Source: Lentilactobacillus rapi DSM 19907 = JCM 15042 (GTDB lineage Bacteria; Bacillota; Bacilli; Lactobacillales; Lactobacillaceae). Taken from it: a stretch of 60,695 nt of DNA. The notes below the pieces were generated by a model. The model ran no database searches. It saw only the letters and a list, made by a program, of their open reading frames with translations, and was not told where the DNA came from. Positions 6,397 to 51,956 of this stretch are shown here, piece by piece. The position numbers were made by a program, and so were the translations under genes. Location of the stretch: NCBI RefSeq assembly GCF_001436255.1, contig NZ_AZEI01000007.1, positions 1 through 60,695 on the forward strand, read 5' to 3'. Position 1 is the first letter of the stretch; every line of letters starts with the position of its first letter.

Positions 6397-6984
6397 ATGT
6401 TACTCCAAACGATTAAAGATGATTTGGGCACTGTGTTGACTGAATATTTTGATAAGGTGAAGTTCCCAGAAAATGGGGTGTTTGTCGTGGGCTGTAGCAC
6501 CAGCGAGATTAGTGGTGACTGGAAAGGGACGAATTCTCGGTTAGATGTTGGCAATGCAGTTGTGGACACCTTAAATAAGTTCCTCATTCCCCGCCATATC
6601 AACCTTGCCATTCAGGGCTGCGAACATATCAATCGGGCCTTATTAGTTGAGCGGTCAGTTGCCGAAAAGCATGACTTGGAAATTGTGTCCGTGGTTCCGG
6701 CCATGCATGCCGGCGGAGGCACGCAAGTAGCGGCGTACGAAAAGATGAGCGATCCAGTTGAAGTTGAACATATCACTGCGTTTGGGGGCATCGATATTGG
6801 CGGCACGGAAATTGGGATGCACGTCAAGTACGTTCAGATTCCAATCCGGATGAGTCACCGCCAAGTGGGCGCAGCTAACGTGGTTTGTTTAGCGTCCCGA
6901 CCAAAATTAATTGGCGGTGAACGCGCAAAGTACGAGTTTACAGCAGCAAATAAAGAAGATTACATATTAGGAGGAATGAATTGA
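6397..6984 (+). CDS. TIGR01440 / DUF436 family protein (YwlG-like)
   Basis: A 195-residue conserved protein of unknown biochemical function. Recognisable features are VGCSTSEISGDWKG near residue 30, LAIQGCEHINRALLVER, and HAGGGTQVAAYE. The start at ATG 6397 sits four bases after the kinase stop, behind GGGAAGAAG. It ends in a TGATG overlap with the next gene, so the three genes form a tight operon. The family is widespread in Firmicutes. Its place between a vitamin kinase and an S component suggests a link to cofactor salvage here, but that is context only. Confidence 0.85.
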   Translation: MLLQTIKDDLGTVLTEYFDKVKFPENGVFVVGCSTSEISGDWKGTNSRLDVGNAVVDTLNKFLIPRHINLAIQGCEHINRALLVERSVAEKHDLEIVSVVPAMHAGGGTQVAAYEKMSDPVEVEHITAFGGIDIGGTEIGMHVKYVQIPIRMSHRQVGAANVVCLASRPKLIGGERAKYEFTAANKEDYILGGMN

Positions 6985-7496
6985 TGGATCGAAAAAGTGT
7001 GGGTGGCAAAGTTAGTACGGATATTTTTAAGATGGTTTTAACAGCGATGTTCATCGCGGTGACGGTTGCGATCAGTCGCTTCTTTATCATTCCGGTGCCA
7101 ATGACCCACGGCAATGTCAATTTATGTGATGCCGGAATTTTCATCAGTGCCCTGTTACTTGGGCCAAGAGTTGGTGGGGTTGTCGGTGGTGCCAGTGGCT
7201 TTCTACTGGACCTGATTTCCGGGTATGGCCAGTACATGTGGTTCTCACTGATTGTCCATGGTGCAGAAGGGCTGATTGTTGGCCTGATCGCGGGTAAAAA
7301 TACCGATAAGAAATGGACCAAACTGATCGCGGTTAGCGTTGGAATCGTAATTATGGTCATCGGCTATTTTGTGGCCGACTCAGTTCTGTATACGATGTAC
7401 GCCGGGTTTGTCGGCATTGGCACCAACTTGATTCAAGGCTTGGTGGGTGCGGTGATTGCTTACTTGGTAACCCCTAAGTTAAGAAAACGAATCTAA
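6984..7496 (+). CDS. ECF transporter S component (vitamin B6 or HMP type)
   Basis: A 170-residue membrane protein with about six hydrophobic segments and the ECF S-component pattern: MVLTAMFIAVTVAI in helix 1 for T-component contact, NLCDAGIFISALLLGPRVGG in the middle. Such proteins bind a vitamin and work with shared EcfA/A'/T energising subunits, which are not in this window. The start is ATG 6984 in a TGATG overlap, behind TTAGGAGG. Linkage to a pyridoxal/HMP-type kinase points to a pyridoxine or thiamine-precursor transporter (PdxU or HmpT class); which of the two is open. Confidence 0.83.
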   Translation: MDRKSVGGKVSTDIFKMVLTAMFIAVTVAISRFFIIPVPMTHGNVNLCDAGIFISALLLGPRVGGVVGGASGFLLDLISGYGQYMWFSLIVHGAEGLIVGLIAGKNTDKKWTKLIAVSVGIVIMVIGYFVADSVLYTMYAGFVGIGTNLIQGLVGAVIAYLVTPKLRKRI

Positions 7497-9919: not shown

Positions 9920-10969
9920 ATGCAAAAACCATTTGATCAGATTCAACTTCACGCAATTTCTAAGGCGGCTCAAGCCGAGATGCAGGATAAGCTGGATAAT
10001 TTGTCTAAACCAATTAAGGGACTGGGCCAGCTGGAACGATTGGCTGATAAGTTGGCTGGGATTCAAGAAACCACTGATTTGAAAATTGATCAGCGGATCT
10101 GCCTGATATACTGTGCCGATCATGGAATTGTTTCAGAGGCGGTGTCGGCGACGTCAGAACCGCTTTCCAACGTTTTGTCGGCCAACGTCGCGGAAGGTCA
10201 TGCTTGCGTGAACGCCTTGGCAATGCGGAATCGTTGTGAAGTCAAGGTATTTGATATTGGTCTGGCTGGGAACTATCAGACGACTAAGATGGTGGACGAG
10301 AAGATTCAGCGCGGCACCAAGAACATGCTGACAAGTGATGCGATGAGTCGGCAAGACGCTGTTAAGTCAATTCAAACTGGCTATGACAATGCCAAGCAGG
10401 CAATCGCTGACGGCAACCAACTGTTGTTGCTAGGCGAAGTTGGTCTCGGCAATACCAGTGCGTCATCGGCGATTGTGTCAACGATGCTTGCACTGCCGGT
10501 TGACGACGTGGTGGATAAGGGTTCTGATATTTCCGTTAAGCAATTTGAGCATAAGAAGCAAGTGATCAAAGACATCTTGGCTGCTCGCCAGCCTGATAAG
10601 ACTGATCCCCTTGGTGTGTTGAGTAAAGTCGGCGGCTTTGAAATTGGCGCAACGGTTGGTACCATGATTGCCGGGGCTGAAGCCGGCGTGCCAGTCATTA
10701 TGGATGGCTTCATTTCAGATGCCGCTGCGGTATTGGCGAAAGCCTTTTACCCTGATATTACTGATCACCTGATTGCTTCTCATTTGTCCGGTGAAAAAGG
10801 TGCGCAACGGGTGCTGGATTATCTTGATTTGAAGCCATTACTGCAATTGGGGATGGCAGTCGGTGAAGGTTCTGGGGCCGTGGTTGCCTTGGCATTGATC
10901 GACGACATCCAATCGGTACTGGTTAATATGAATACGTTGCAGGATTTGAATTTTGAGTATGAAAACTAG
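9920..10969 (+). CDS. cobT: Nicotinate-nucleotide--dimethylbenzimidazole phosphoribosyltransferase
   Basis: CobT transfers phosphoribose from nicotinate mononucleotide to 5,6-dimethylbenzimidazole to give alpha-ribazole phosphate, the lower ligand of cobalamin. KPIKGLGQLERLADKLAGIQ is the conserved N-terminal signature, then YCADHGIV, LLLGEVGLGNTSASSA, and GEGSGAVVAL with the catalytic glutamate. ATG 9920 is chosen because GAAGAAGG lies eight bases before it; an upstream in-frame ATG (9887) has no ribosome site. The protein is then 349 residues, the usual family length. It is alone here, about 47 kb from the other cobalamin genes. No cobalamin riboswitch was seen upstream. Confidence 0.93.
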   Translation: MQKPFDQIQLHAISKAAQAEMQDKLDNLSKPIKGLGQLERLADKLAGIQETTDLKIDQRICLIYCADHGIVSEAVSATSEPLSNVLSANVAEGHACVNALAMRNRCEVKVFDIGLAGNYQTTKMVDEKIQRGTKNMLTSDAMSRQDAVKSIQTGYDNAKQAIADGNQLLLLGEVGLGNTSASSAIVSTMLALPVDDVVDKGSDISVKQFEHKKQVIKDILAARQPDKTDPLGVLSKVGGFEIGATVGTMIAGAEAGVPVIMDGFISDAAAVLAKAFYPDITDHLIASHLSGEKGAQRVLDYLDLKPLLQLGMAVGEGSGAVVALALIDDIQSVLVNMNTLQDLNFEYEN

Positions 10970-17839: not shown

Positions 17840-17949
17840 GATGTTTAGAGAAACCTGATTTCTAGATTCTTTCGGTTATTTAACCATTCAGTTTCGCATA
17901 CTAAGCTACGTAGATTAATCATGCTCCGGAAAACTGACGCTTGATCAGG

Positions 17950-18042
17950 TAAGCCTTTCAACCCAGAAATCCAAACCCGTGATTTTCGGATTGAAAGGCT
18001 TAAAAGGCTTATATGAATTCCGCTTTGCTGCACTCACTTATT
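17950..18042 (+). repeat. Palindrome family P, degenerate copy 1
   Basis: TAAGCCTTTCAA / TTGAAAGGCTTA forms the core stem, followed by the family end CGCTTTGCTGCACTCACTTA. The left end of the element is lost or strongly changed. Confidence 0.6.
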
Positions 18043-18167
18043 TTAGGACAGCTCCTCAAAGCAACAATCTGCGTGTAAGCACCTTGAAGAAAAATTCCAA
18101 AAATCAGGAATCTTTCTTCAAGGAGACTTACACTCCGATTGTTACCGCTTTGCTGCACTCACTTATT
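18043..18167 (+). repeat. Palindrome family P, copy 2 (tandem array)
   Basis: Begins TTAGGACAGCTCC and ends GCACTCACTTATT. Helices: AACAATC/GATTGTT, GTGTAAG/CTTACAC, a variable core CCTTGAAGAAA/TTTCTTCAAGG, and an inner ATTCC/GGAAT. The CA / AGA internal loop beside the core is kept. Confidence 0.8.
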
Positions 18168-18291
18168 CTAGGACAGCTCCTCAAAGCAACAATCTGCACA
18201 TAAGCACCACAAACAAAAGTCCAGAACCAGGATTTCCGCTTGTGGAGACTTATGTTTCGGTTATTAACTGCTTTGATCCGCTCACTTATTT
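18168..18291 (+). repeat. Palindrome family P, copy 3 (tandem array)
   Basis: Same ends as copy 2. The core stem is CCACAAAC with GCTTGTGG (changed on both sides relative to copy 2), and the outer CATAAG/CTTATG replaces GTAAG/CTTAC. Confidence 0.8.
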
Positions 18292-18416
18292 TTAGGACAG
18301 CTCCTCCAAGCAGGAATCTGCTTGTAAGCACCACCGAGAAAAATTCCAAAATCGGGAATTTCCCTCAGCGGCAACTTACACTCCGATCCCTTACCGCTTT
18401 GATCCGCTCACTTGTA
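18292..18416 (+). repeat. Palindrome family P, copy 4 (tandem array)
   Basis: Same ends. Core CCGAGAAAAATTCC / GGGAATTTCCCTCAGCGG; the lower helix AGGAATC / GATCCCT is less well paired. Confidence 0.8.
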
Positions 18417-18538
18417 TTAGGACAGCTGCGCAAAGCAAAAGTCTGCACATAAGCACCGCCAACAAAAATCCCCAAAACCGGGATTTCTGTTGGCGGAGAC
18501 TTATGCTCCGACTTTTAACCGCTTTGCTGCGCTCACTC
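18417..18538 (+). repeat. Palindrome family P, copy 5 (tandem array)
   Basis: Core CCGCCAACA / TGTTGGCGG and lower helix AAAAGTC / GACTTTT, both fully paired and different from the other copies. The right end overlaps the stop codon of the minus-strand membrane protein gene. Confidence 0.8.
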
Positions 18539-19166
18539 ATTCCTTGATAAAGTTTTCCAACACCTTACCATCTTCCACTGTCAGTAGAGTCTGCTTCGAT
18601 GGAATTGGAGCGACAATCCTGAATTGATAGCCAGCTCCAGCGCCCTTTTTGATGACCAGGCTGGTTTTGGTAAAGCCCTTCACGCTGGCAGGCCACTGGA
18701 CCGTTTTAGATTGATCCGGATTTTTCTTGAGGTAGGTCATTGCCTTGTTGAAGTCTTTATTGGTGATGGTGAGGGTGTAGACTTTGGTCTTTTCGTTGAA
18801 ATCAACCTTGCCGAGTTTACGGTAACTTCCCTTAAGTGTCTTCAAAACATTGGCTTCGTTTAATTGACGACGGGCGGCTGCCTGCTTCTTTTCGCCGGCA
18901 TCGAAGACCATGTTTTTGTTATGGCTGGCCATTGATGACATTTGTTTCTGTTTTTCGGTCGGTGGGGTTTCCTTTGTTTCGTTTTGGCTGCGGATAGCCC
19001 CTGGCATTAAATAGCCCCCGATGGCAATCATGACAACCGCGATGGCAATGAGAAAGACAATCAGGCCGCGGGTTTGATTTTTGTACATTGCGGTTCTAAG
19101 TGAGAAGAATCCAAGTAGAATCATGATCGCGCCGACAACACATAAGAAAACTGATAAATATAACAA
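18537..19166 (-). CDS. Membrane-anchored protein of unknown function
   Basis: About 209 residues: two N-terminal membrane segments (about residues 3-25 and 37-58), then an extracellular or cytoplasmic Lys/Gln-rich linker and a small C-terminal domain of about 120 residues with VYTLTITNKDFNKAMTYL. The start is uncertain: TTG 19166 behind GGGGGAAAG is preferred over the in-frame TTG at 19202. No family is recognised. The stop codon lies at the very end of the palindrome array. Confidence 0.65.
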   Translation of the reverse strand: MLYLSVFLCVVGAIMILLGFFSLRTAMYKNQTRGLIVFLIAIAVVMIAIGGYLMPGAIRSQNETKETPPTEKQKQMSSMASHNKNMVFDAGEKKQAAARRQLNEANVLKTLKGSYRKLGKVDFNEKTKVYTLTITNKDFNKAMTYLKKNPDQSKTVQWPASVKGFTKTSLVIKKGAGAGYQFRIVAPIPSKQTLLTVEDGKVLENFIKE

Positions 19167-19302
19167 GTTACTTTCCCCCGTCGATATAGTGTGGATTTGC
19201 AATAATTAATCTGTCGTTTTGATAATACCAAAAGCATATAATATTTTGGATGGGGTGTAAAGATTGACGAATTGGAATTTTGGGGCAGACACTAAGCCCT
19301 TA

Positions 19303-22760: not shown

Positions 22761-22780
22761 TGTTTATCTCCTTAAATAGT

Positions 22781-22904
22781 AGTGAGCGAAGCAAAGCGGT
22801 TAGAAAGCGGAGTGTAAGTCTCCTTTGCGGAAAATTCCCGAACTTGGGATTTTCCGCAAAGGTGCTTACGCGTAGCTTTCTGCCTTGCGTAACTTATTTT
22901 CCAC
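22781..22904 (-). repeat. Palindrome family P, copy 6, inside the fructose operon
   Basis: In reverse orientation, from AGTGAGCGAAGCAAAGCGG to the GCGTAACTTA end. Core CCTTTGCGGAAAATTCC / GGGATTTTCCGCAAAGG is perfectly paired and unlike the other copies. It lies between the fructokinase and mdh genes on the same strand, so the mRNA would carry the fold. Confidence 0.8.
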
Positions 22905-28744: not shown

Positions 28745-29395
28745 TTGACATTATCAATTGGAATTATCGGCGCAACTGGCCGAGCTGGTAGCGAAATTGC
28801 CAAAGAAGCGATTAGCAGAGGGATGCAAGTCACGGCGTTTGTGAGAAGTGCGGACAAAGCTAAAGAAATGCTCGGAGATAAAGTCACTCCGATCCAAAAG
28901 GATGCCTTTGAAATTCAGAAAAAAGACATTGAGCATTTGGATGTTGTGGTGGATGCCTTCGCTACTCGGGATACGGGAAAAGCCTATCAGCACGTTGACC
29001 TGGCTGCCAAATTAATTGAATTGGTCCAGGGTCAAGCTGAGCCAAGGCTGTTCTTTATTTTAGGTGCGGGCAGTTTGGAAACGGGGGACGGCCACCACTT
29101 GATTGACCGACTCGAAAAGATGCCAAATAATGAATCGTTCATTTCAATCCCCCGAGAACAATTTAAAGAATATCAGCTCCTCATGAATACAAAAAATGTG
29201 AACTGGGTGGCAATTTCCCCGAGTGCAAATTTTGTCCCGGGAGAGCAAAGGGATTATGAAATTGGCGGCAATGAACTCATGAAGAACGCTGCGGGTAAGT
29301 CGGAAGTAACGACGGGAACGGTCGCAAAGGTGATCATTGACGAGATTGTCGAACCAAAGCACCGGAATGAGAGATTTACGGTGGTAAACAAGTAG
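28745..29395 (+). CDS. NAD(P)-binding Rossmann oxidoreductase (NmrA/SDR-like)
   Basis: A 216-residue atypical short-chain dehydrogenase-like protein. SIGIIGATGRAGSEIAKEA is the GxxGxxG dinucleotide site, followed by VTAFVRSADKA and DVVVDAFATRD. No Tyr-x3-Lys pair is evident, as is usual for the NmrA/isoflavone-reductase-like group. TTG 28745 is chosen because GGGAGGA lies six bases before it. It stands alone and ends two bases before palindrome copy 7. The substrate is unknown; roles in redox sensing or quinone handling are typical for the group. Confidence 0.82.
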   Translation: MTLSIGIIGATGRAGSEIAKEAISRGMQVTAFVRSADKAKEMLGDKVTPIQKDAFEIQKKDIEHLDVVVDAFATRDTGKAYQHVDLAAKLIELVQGQAEPRLFFILGAGSLETGDGHHLIDRLEKMPNNESFISIPREQFKEYQLLMNTKNVNWVAISPSANFVPGEQRDYEIGGNELMKNAAGKSEVTTGTVAKVIIDEIVEPKHRNERFTVVNK

Positions 29396-29396
29396 T

Positions 29397-29516
29397 GTGC
29401 GGAGCCAAGCGGGAATAACCGAAACATAAGTCGCCCCAACCACAACTCCCCGATTTTGGGAGTTGTGGTTGGGGTGCTTATGTGCAGGTTATTGCTTGGC
29501 GGAGCAGTCCTAATCC
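29397..29516 (-). repeat. Palindrome family P, copy 7
   Basis: Reverse orientation. The core is GCCCCAACCACAACTCCC / GGGAGTTGTGGTTGGGG, longer and more GC-rich than in other copies. Lower helix AATAACC / GGTTATT and outer ACATAAG / CTTATGT are fully paired. Confidence 0.75.
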
Positions 29517-39294: not shown

Positions 39295-39418
39295 CTAGTG
39301 AGCAAATCCAAGCGGTTAGGAGTCGGAGCGTAAGTCTCCACAGAGGAAAATTCCTGGTTTTGGAATTTCCCTCTGTGGTGCTTACGTGCAGATTCCTGCT
39401 TGGAGGAGCTGTCCTAAA
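39295..39418 (-). repeat. Palindrome family P, copy 8
   Basis: Reverse orientation, from AGTGAGCAAATCCAAGCGG to GGAGGAGCTGTCCTAA. Core CCACAGAGG / CCTCTGTGG; lower helix AGGAGTC / GATTCCT. Confidence 0.8.
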
Positions 39419-39421
39419 ATC

Positions 39422-39542
39422 AGTGAGCAGATCCAAGCGGTTAACAATCGGAGTGTAAGTCTCCAACGAGGGGAATTCCCGATTCTGGAATTTTCCTCGA
39501 TGGTGCTTACATGCAAATCCTGCTTGGAGCAGCTGACCTAAT
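39422..39542 (-). repeat. Palindrome family P, copy 9
   Basis: Directly follows copy 8 in the same orientation. Core CCAACGAGG / CCTCGATGG carries two mismatches, so this copy is partly decayed. Confidence 0.75.
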
Positions 39543-48229: not shown

Positions 48230-48309
48230 TCGATTCCTTCTGCTACTGAAAATATACCTGAATGTATATCCAGATTTTTCTTGCTTCATCCTATCCCACC
48301 TCGACACAA

Positions 48310-48386
48310 GCTCTCTACTATGGTTGATATGATAGTCCACAAGCGTAAATTCCCGGCTAGCCACCGGTACATTCTTCGTCGCCTGG
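48310..48386 (-). ncRNA. Putative omega RNA (guide RNA) region of TnpB
   Basis: Downstream of tnpB, on the same strand, the sequence has GGCTAGCC, TAGCC...GGCTA pairing, and an ACTAT...ATAGT stem. In IS200/605 and IS607 elements the TnpB guide RNA covers the tnpB 3' end and this region, with the guide taken from flanking DNA. Boundaries are inferred. Confidence 0.45.
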
Positions 48387-51824: not shown

Positions 51825-51834
51825 ATGAAGGGGA

Positions 51835-51956
51835 TAGGACAGCTGCGTAAAGCAGAAGTCTGCATGTAAGCACCAGTGAGAAAAATTCCAGAACCGGGAA
51901 TTTCCCTCACTGGAGACTTTCCGACTTCCAAGTGCTTTACTCCGCTCACTTATAGT
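51835..51956 (+). repeat. Palindrome family P, copy 10, inside the PNAG operon
   Basis: TAGGACAGCTGCG...GCTCACTTATAG. Core CCAGTGAG / CTCACTGG; lower helix AGAAGTC / GACTTCC. It fills most of the 145-base gap between the GH20 and synthase genes. Confidence 0.8.

What the first reader, a model, noticed from the sequence alone, without database searches (positions are those of the whole stretch)
17950..18538. Family P: dispersed ~120-bp palindromes with helices that covary between copies
Seen directly: about a dozen copies at 18, 22.8, 29.4, 39.3-39.5, 51.8 and 54.4-54.7 kb share end sequences (TTAGGACAGCTCC ... GCTCACTTA, or a sub-family variant) and fixed internal loops (CA opposite AGA beside TAAG/CTTA). 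The helices between them change on both sides: lower helix AACAATC/GATTGTT, AAAAGTC/GACTTTT, AATAACC/GGTTATT; core CCTTTGCGG/CCGCAAAGG, CCACAGAGG/CCTCTGTGG, CCGCCAACA/TGTTGGCGG. Compensating change with constant loops argues for selection on a folded RNA or DNA, not simple drift of a dead repeat. No transposase is linked. This could be a new structured RNA, a REP/MITE-type element mobilised in trans, or an mRNA processing element.
Basis: partly seen in the sequence, partly recalled or inferred. Interest (0 to 1): 0.82.

Follow-up and report, generated by a model that had tools for sequence, protein, structure and literature searches.

The report
Mobile hairpin repeat with DNA-level covariation
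A short hairpin-forming repeat is scattered in hundreds of copies through Lentilactobacillus genomes, often butted against the ribosome-binding site or the stop codon of a gene; its two arms do change together, but the pattern fits a mobile DNA hairpin better than a working RNA.

Summary
Twelve ~122-bp units are listed in the window (11 at 102-143 bits, one at 56); nhmmer finds 238 units in 112 arrays in 603 kb of the own genome. Covariation survives a tree-based null: 11 column pairs beat all 40 nulls, all 11 in the proposed structure. It is a mobile element: filled/empty site pairs and units 99-100% identical at different loci; unit number and identity turn over at shared sites. The 3' end is polar: of 296 arrays, 133 end just before a Shine-Dalgarno plus start codon and 93 at a convergent gene's stop codon, against 2 and 17 of 223 5' ends. 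Selection on resident transcribed RNA is not the best reading: mismatches favour A.C over G.U (454 vs 193), equally whichever strand is transcribed (ratios 2.30 and 2.47), and orthologous copies change mainly on one side of a pair. Best model: a non-autonomous hairpin mobilised in trans, its fold kept at DNA level. The mobiliser is unknown; Y1, IS110 and reverse transcriptase genes do not track it.

The parts
17905..18040 (+). decayed fifth unit of the 18-kb array; its apical palindrome is the 17950-18002 stretch where the finding begins
   Evidence: by eye: variant 5' end (compare) and CCGCTTTGCTGCACTCACTTA 3' end; inverted repeat 17950-18002
18043..18165 (+). unit 1 of array
   Evidence: R1, 117.1 bits
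18168..18288 (+). unit 2 of array
   Evidence: R1, 120.1 bits
18292..18414 (+). unit 3 of array
   Evidence: R1, 124.2 bits
18417..18539 (+). unit 4 of array; its 3' end supplies the stop codon of the convergent ORF
   Evidence: R1, 142.7 bits; no unit at this place in L. kisonensis (L192) and G014 (L194), 7 units detected in L. dabitei (L208)
18537..19202 (-). 221-aa ORF whose stop lies in the 3' end of unit 4 (class B site)
22779..22901 (-). single unit before the Shine-Dalgarno of an alcohol-dehydrogenase-type gene; site empty in L. dabitei
   Evidence: R1 102.1 bits
21756..22760 (-). 334-aa zinc-type alcohol dehydrogenase family gene downstream of the unit (class A site)
29392..29513 (-). 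single unit abutting the stop codon of a convergent NAD(P)-binding gene (class B); three units in L. dabitei, one of them with the CA/AGA loop erased
   Evidence: R1 126.8 bits
28727..29395 (+). 222-aa NAD(P)H-binding ORF ended by the unit
39295..39417 (-). unit nearest the gene in a two-unit array between promoter-like sequence and Shine-Dalgarno
   Evidence: R1 134.9 bits; no unit there in 9 relatives, one unit in L. dabitei
39420..39541 (-). outer unit of the two-unit array
   Evidence: R1 111.6 bits
38247..39275 (-). 342-aa zinc-binding dehydrogenase downstream of the two-unit array (class A site)
51834..51952 (+). single unit about 19 nt before the ATG of a glycosyltransferase gene (class A)
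   Evidence: R1 114.1 bits
54412..54534 (+). unit of the variant subfamily (GTGCTC ... CGCACTCT ends)
   Evidence: R1 112.3 bits
54536..54658 (+). second unit of the variant subfamily
   Evidence: R1 108.4 bits
14572..14692 (+). weak, diverged relative (56 bits)

Best explanation
A non-autonomous mobile DNA element of Lentilactobacillus, about 117-125 bp, that folds into one long hairpin broken by fixed internal loops and is moved by an unidentified enzyme acting in trans. SHOWN: it is dispersed in hundreds of copies, often as head-to-tail arrays; sites are filled in one species and empty in another; near-identical units sit at unrelated loci; no clear target duplication; the 3' end (CACT) lies a few bases before a Shine-Dalgarno (mode 7 nt) or at a convergent gene's stop codon. 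INFERRED: the hairpin is recognised mainly by shape (constant loops, any Watson-Crick stem), so paired changes accumulate in lineages that keep moving, while copies decay after landing. The wobble asymmetry suggests that the strand complementary to the one read here is the one whose fold is used, as single-stranded DNA or another mobile intermediate, whatever gene lies next door. Landing in 5' UTRs probably alters expression of the neighbour, but as a side effect, not as the source of the covariation.
For: Filled/empty pairs. Units 100% identical at different loci (L115/L138; L107/L111) and a 99.2% relative at L114:10159, whose site is empty in L. dabitei. Unit number differs at shared sites, e.g. 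7 vs 2, 2 vs 5, 4 vs 7; two shared single-copy sites have units only 72% and 75% alike with flanks 85-97% alike. Polarity: 133 A and 93 B of 296 3' ends; 2 A and 17 B of 223 5' ends; 67 A and 57 B of 3866 random positions. A.C over G.U independent of transcribed strand. Conserved unpaired columns do not show that direction apart from one column: C>T 190/4809, A>G 69/3100, G>A 66/892 (56 of them in one column), T>C 10/1792. Nearest-neighbour units with 4-6 differences hold 22 WC-WC doubles against 2.7 expected by independent placement; with 7-10 differences, 98 against 11.7. In 26 orthologous pairs of 93% or more, stems differ at 38/1959, internal loops at 23/590, apical loops at 17/384, so loops that are constant in the family are not specially conserved after landing.
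Against: No mobilising gene was found: Y1 transposase in 7 of 24 genus genomes and absent from copy-rich G004, G014, G003, G006; IS110 in 6 of 24, absent from own, G011, G014; RT in 8 of 24, three of them without repeats. Stems change more slowly than loops between orthologs (1.9% vs 3.9%), as in-situ selection or repair would give. Many sites are shared: 42 of 47 own arrays have a detected unit in L. dabitei, 28 of 38 in L. kisonensis. The A.C excess is strong when units are pooled (211 units AC>GU vs 45, 194 ties, p 7e-27) but units are related; by column it is 24 vs 12 (my hand count, one outer pair included, one tie; p 0.065), and in 30 orthologous pairs 18 vs 9 (p 0.12). Position before the Shine-Dalgarno is also what a 5'-UTR regulator would show.
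Confidence: 0.7

Rival explanations
1. A cis-acting structured RNA: the hairpin in the 5' UTR is selected at each site, e.g. as an mRNA stabiliser or a protein-binding leader that controls translation.
For: 133 of 296 array 3' ends stop just before a Shine-Dalgarno in the sense direction, mode 7 nt; significant covariation; stems slower than loops between orthologs; 28 of 38 own sites shared with L. kisonensis; by eye some empty sites lie between a -10-like box and the Shine-Dalgarno.
Against: 93 of 296 arrays are antisense at stop codons, with the same pairing quality (94.4% vs 94.1% WC) and the same A.C bias. Internal loops decay between orthologs. Many sites are empty in relatives. No Rfam family at gathering score.
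Confidence: 0.14
2. The covariation is produced by DNA repair or replication rather than selection: mismatches in an extruded hairpin are corrected against the other arm, or polymerase switches template within it. Compatible with the mobile-element reading.
For: G.U is the rarest mismatch class; stems change at half the loop rate between orthologs; 20 of 545 units have the CA/AGA loop erased into an exact palindrome, one of them in L. dabitei at the 29.4-kb site where the own unit keeps the loop; published precedent for template switching in RNA genes, PMC8794818 (abstract and one results section read).
Against: Doubles are mostly single base pairs: 101 runs of one, 7 of two, 2 of three, not tracts. 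Internal loops survive in most units. Doubles are rare in close orthologs (1 in pairs of 0.94 or more), so correction in place must be slow.
Confidence: 0.25
3. Miniature relative (MITE) of an insertion sequence whose transposase is still in these genomes but was not among the three families sought. A special case of the mobile-element reading.
For: Size, dispersal, empty sites; a MITE review, PMC10969869 (passages read), describes prokaryotic MITEs as mostly intergenic. Flanks are slightly more alike than in shuffles: mean longest shared string 4.14 against 3.88 +- 0.07, above all 200 shuffles, which a very short duplication or locally shared T-rich sequence would give.
Against: No duplication of fixed length or offset stands out and single junctions are ambiguous; ends are only imperfectly inverted; strong orientation polarity and head-to-tail arrays are unusual for MITEs (recalled).
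Confidence: 0.3

Closest known systems
Pneumococcal BOX / RUP / SPRITE repeats (PMC3049150, passages read)
   Same: small interspersed repeats, judged parasitic by that paper, some affecting neighbouring expression; BOX carries a repeatable module
   Different: those are over-represented between convergent genes (passage read); here the largest class is a sense position before the Shine-Dalgarno, and whole units are repeated. 'covar' and 'compensat' have no hits in that paper's text
REP/BIME with RAYT (Y1) transposases (PMC2817692, listing only; otherwise recalled)
   Same: hundreds of intergenic hairpins, clustered, mobilised in trans
   Different: units are several times longer, arrays are head-to-tail, and Y1 genes are missing from several copy-rich genomes
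ERIC / Correia-type MITEs (recalled)
   Same: about 120-150 bp imperfect palindromes, some in transcribed regions
   Different: no clear target duplication, strict 3'-end polarity, four Watson-Crick types at nearly equal frequency in the core helix (columns 43/78: 112/101/91/91)
Integron attC sites (recalled)
   Same: shape-recognised folded single strand, variable stems, fixed unpaired bases, folded strand not tied to transcription
   Different: no cassette genes between array units; no integrase was sought; attC core boxes were not formally tested

Membership tests
MITE | short, dispersed, mobile | tested here: met
MITE | target site duplication | tested here: inconclusive
   206 flank pairs: no fixed length or offset stands out, but mean shared string 4.14 exceeds all 200 shuffles (max 4.07); single junctions ambiguous
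MITE | terminal inverted repeats shared with a parent IS | tested here: inconclusive
   ends AGGACAGC / GCTCACT pair only partly; no parent IS found, but only PF01797, PF01548 and PF00078 were sought
REP/BIME-RAYT | Y1 transposase in copy-rich genomes | tested here: not met
   PF01797 in 7 of 24 genus genomes; absent from G004, G014, G003, G006 (copies)
REP/BIME-RAYT | units in alternating orientation | tested here: not met
   each of the 47 own arrays printed has one orientation; one L. kisonensis array printed reads --+
cis-regulatory structured RNA | significant covariation | tested here: met
   11 of 38 pairs above all nulls
cis-regulatory structured RNA | wobble tolerated on the transcribed strand | tested here: not met
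   AC/GU 2.30 (class A), 2.47 (class B), 2.67 (neither)
cis-regulatory structured RNA | conserved position at orthologous genes | tested here: inconclusive
   unit present at 42 of 47 own sites in L. dabitei, 28 of 38 own sites in L. kisonensis, but only 33 of 77 L. kisonensis sites in own or L. dabitei; no unit in 9 other relatives at 39.3 kb
Rfam family | match at gathering score | tested here: not met
   with a lax threshold on 17900-18600 only sub-threshold matches, mostly microRNA families
integron attC | R/L core boxes, integrase, cassettes | not tested
   resemblance recalled

The most novel reading that the evidence does not exclude
A shape-recognised single-strand DNA hairpin system: an unknown enzyme recognises the fixed loops of the folded bottom strand, tolerates any Watson-Crick stem, and lays units 3' end first against expression signals (Shine-Dalgarno, stop codon, and by eye some -35 boxes and terminator tails), adding further units head to tail. 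Its covariation passes an RNA-style test although no RNA function is selected, which makes it a natural counter-example to 'covariation means functional RNA'.
Probability: 0.35. Interest if true: 0.82.

Novelty: new variant of a known kind. Interest (0 to 1): 0.6.

Why it matters
It is a large natural experiment in hairpin evolution: hundreds of copies, three related species, empty sites and orthologous copies. It lets one ask whether strong covariation can arise without RNA function, and gives a simple control (compare wobble on the transcribed and untranscribed strand in both insertion orientations) that RNA-discovery screens could adopt. It also describes a repeat that puts a stable hairpin into the 5' UTR of many genes in Lentilactobacillus, and shows a copy carried on plasmids of several genera beside a copper-repressor gene.

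Tried and rejected
Y1/RAYT as mobiliser: rejected for present-day genomes. IS110: absent from own, G011, G014. Reverse transcriptase: patchy, 8 of 24. Target duplication: no clear one, though a slight excess of flank similarity above all 200 shuffles remains. Replication-strand bias: one search gives strands for a 2-contig genome, but the origin was not located and gene direction confounds it; not used. tRNA control for wobble was crude: 10 unique tRNAs, fixed offsets, 87 WC, 13 GU, 4 AC, 16 other; only supportive. RAGATH-18 as a control: too few copies, 8 matches in 24 genomes. Block template switching as the main source of doubles: disfavoured, since runs are nearly all single pairs. Literature: eight full-text searches showed no title or abstract start on this family in the rows listed; only open-licence papers are held and only the top rows were seen, so 'undescribed' is not proven. 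Papers seen: PMC8794818 (abstract and one section), PMC3049150 and PMC10969869 (passages); all others as listings only.

Full report
WHAT IS THERE. The window's genome has 2.85 Mb in 87 contigs. A unit reads TT-AGGACAGC-(loop)-P1-P2-(TGC or TCC opposite TCC)-P3 (RYRTAAG/CTTAYRY)-(CA opposite AGA)-P4-P5-apical loop, closed by GCTCACT, with a T-rich linker of mostly 4-8 nt (mode 6) before the next unit. The window list has 12 sense units, one of them weak. The own genome has at least 150 (all 150 scored candidates matched). In 603 kb around these, nhmmer finds 238 units (188 full, 50 partial) in 112 arrays: 41 singles, 38 doubles, up to 6. Some partial units are left halves that stop near the hairpin apex and run into the next unit.

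DISTRIBUTION. Within the genus 17 of 24 genomes have it. The phage collection has no match. In the plasmid collection 72 records match, 3 at 80-90% and 69 at 60-80% identity. In the four records I opened, the unit follows a CopY-type copper repressor gene; in three it ends 22 nt before a heavy-metal P-type ATPase gene, in a Listeria plasmid the next annotated gene is an IS6 transposase. That looks like one copy carried along with a copper operon (inference).

COVARIATION. On 49 copies RNAalifold finds 38 pairs, 24 with changes on both sides. On 448 unique full units from three species the structure cells are 15080 Watson-Crick, 454 A.C, 193 G.U, 320 other (outer two pairs left out). At core pair 43/78 all four types are nearly equal (112 CG, 101 TA, 91 GC, 91 AT). 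With a tree-aware null on 200 of these rows, 11 column pairs exceed all 40 nulls; all 11 are structure pairs, so no pair between different helices does.

MOBILITY. At 39.3 kb the own genome has two units and L. dabitei one; in L. kisonensis, G014 and seven others the upstream stretch runs into the Shine-Dalgarno without a unit. At 22.8 kb and at L114:10034 L. dabitei is empty. At 29.4 kb L. dabitei and L. kisonensis carry units behind the same stop codon; by eye the other 11 relatives printed do not. One search prints 14 filled/empty alignments involving L. kisonensis; some are clean, some gapped. The L114 unit at 10159 is 99.2% identical to units at L107 and L111. Of 47 own arrays matched in the fetched 583 kb of L. 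dabitei, 42 have at least one detected unit there; of the five without, two are the empty sites above and three hold partial or diverged copies by eye. Of 38 own arrays matched in 798 kb of L. kisonensis, 28 have a unit; of 77 L. kisonensis arrays matched in own or L. dabitei DNA, 33 have. Unit number often differs, e.g. 7 vs 2, 5 vs 2, 2 vs 5, and units at shared sites may be only 72-80% alike. So units turn over faster than their surroundings. No clear target duplication: no length or offset stands out in 206 flank pairs, though the mean shared string (4.14) exceeds all 200 shuffles (mean 3.88, max 4.07).

POLARITY. Of 296 arrays with a usable 3' end, 133 (class A) end before a Shine-Dalgarno plus start codon, 13-44 nt from it (mode 21), and 93 (class B) end at the stop codon of a convergent ORF; 70 are neither. 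The same test on 223 5' ends gives 2 and 17, on 3866 random positions 67 and 57. Genes were taken as simple ORFs, not from an annotation. The Shine-Dalgarno match begins most often 7 nt after CACT (38 of 133). Among the 'neither' flanks printed, several end by eye before a -35/-10-like pair or at the A-run of a terminator hairpin; I did not count these. At 29.4 and 18.5 kb the element's own last bases make the stop codon.

RNA OR DNA? If the transcribed RNA were selected in place, G.U should outnumber A.C on the transcribed strand, and the sign should flip between class A and class B. It does not: AC/GU is 2.30 (bootstrap over units 1.8-3.0) in 259 class A units, 2.47 (1.7-3.9) in 105 class B units and 2.67 in 74 of neither class. 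Polarised by nearest neighbour, stems show G>A 221 and T>C 194 against C>T 99 and A>G 88. Conserved unpaired columns do not show this direction, apart from one column. The simplest reading is that the complementary strand's fold tolerates its own G.T wobbles; an alternative is that G.T mismatches on the strand read here are repaired. Against over-reading: by column the excess is 24 vs 12 (hand count; p 0.065) and in orthologs 18 vs 9 (p 0.12).

WHERE DOUBLES ARISE. Among 36 orthologous pairs, 67 stem changes are single-sided (29 A.C, 25 other, 11 G.U, 2 mismatch to mismatch); 13 of 14 WC-WC doubles fall in five pairs of 0.87-0.92 identity, where replacement of the unit cannot be excluded, and one in a pair of 0.94. 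Among nearest-neighbour units doubles come early: 22 observed vs 2.7 expected at 4-6 differences. Up to 10 differences, 72 are of transition type and 49 of transversion type, nearly always one pair at a time. So compensation seems to go with spreading lineages rather than with age at a site, which suggests selection or correction during mobilisation. Some units have lost the CA/AGA loop and are exact palindromes there (20 of 545), so arm-to-arm correction probably also happens.

CONCLUSION. A real, mobile, hairpin-forming repeat family; a new variant of the MITE/REP kind because of its 3'-end polarity, head-to-tail arrays, lack of a clear target duplication and fully diversified stems. Membership in REP/BIME proper is not claimed (defining features tested and not met), and in MITE proper it stays open (parent element and target duplication not established). 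The mobiliser is unknown. The three rivals overlap with the best reading: repair-driven covariation and a MITE with an unseen parent are both forms of a mobile DNA hairpin, so their odds do not add to one.

Noticed in passing
window 48278-48343 (-): RAGATH-18 RNA (Rfam RF03064, 58.3 bits); in the genus it occurs in 6 of 24 genomes, all six with 55 or more repeat copies, though other copy-rich genomes lack it.
   Followed up: partly
L337:5995-6114, L339:4995-5114, L340:2547-2666, L338:4995-5114: One repeat copy sits behind the CopY copper-repressor gene on plasmids of several genera; 72 plasmid records match in all, 16 of them Listeria.
   Followed up: partly
L135 about 6979-7372, L110 1626-2042, L105 10274-10567: Arrays with left half-units that stop near the hairpin apex and run into a CTACATAG-like motif plus the next unit's 5' end.
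   Followed up: no
G006 contig 1, e.g. 450160-450249: Core-only relatives matching model positions 18-107 (90 nt), perhaps a shorter sister family.
   Followed up: no
L125:4371 and L127:6548, downstream flanks: Array 3' ends that by eye abut a -35/-10-like promoter or the A-run of a terminator, possible further classes of landing site.
   Followed up: no
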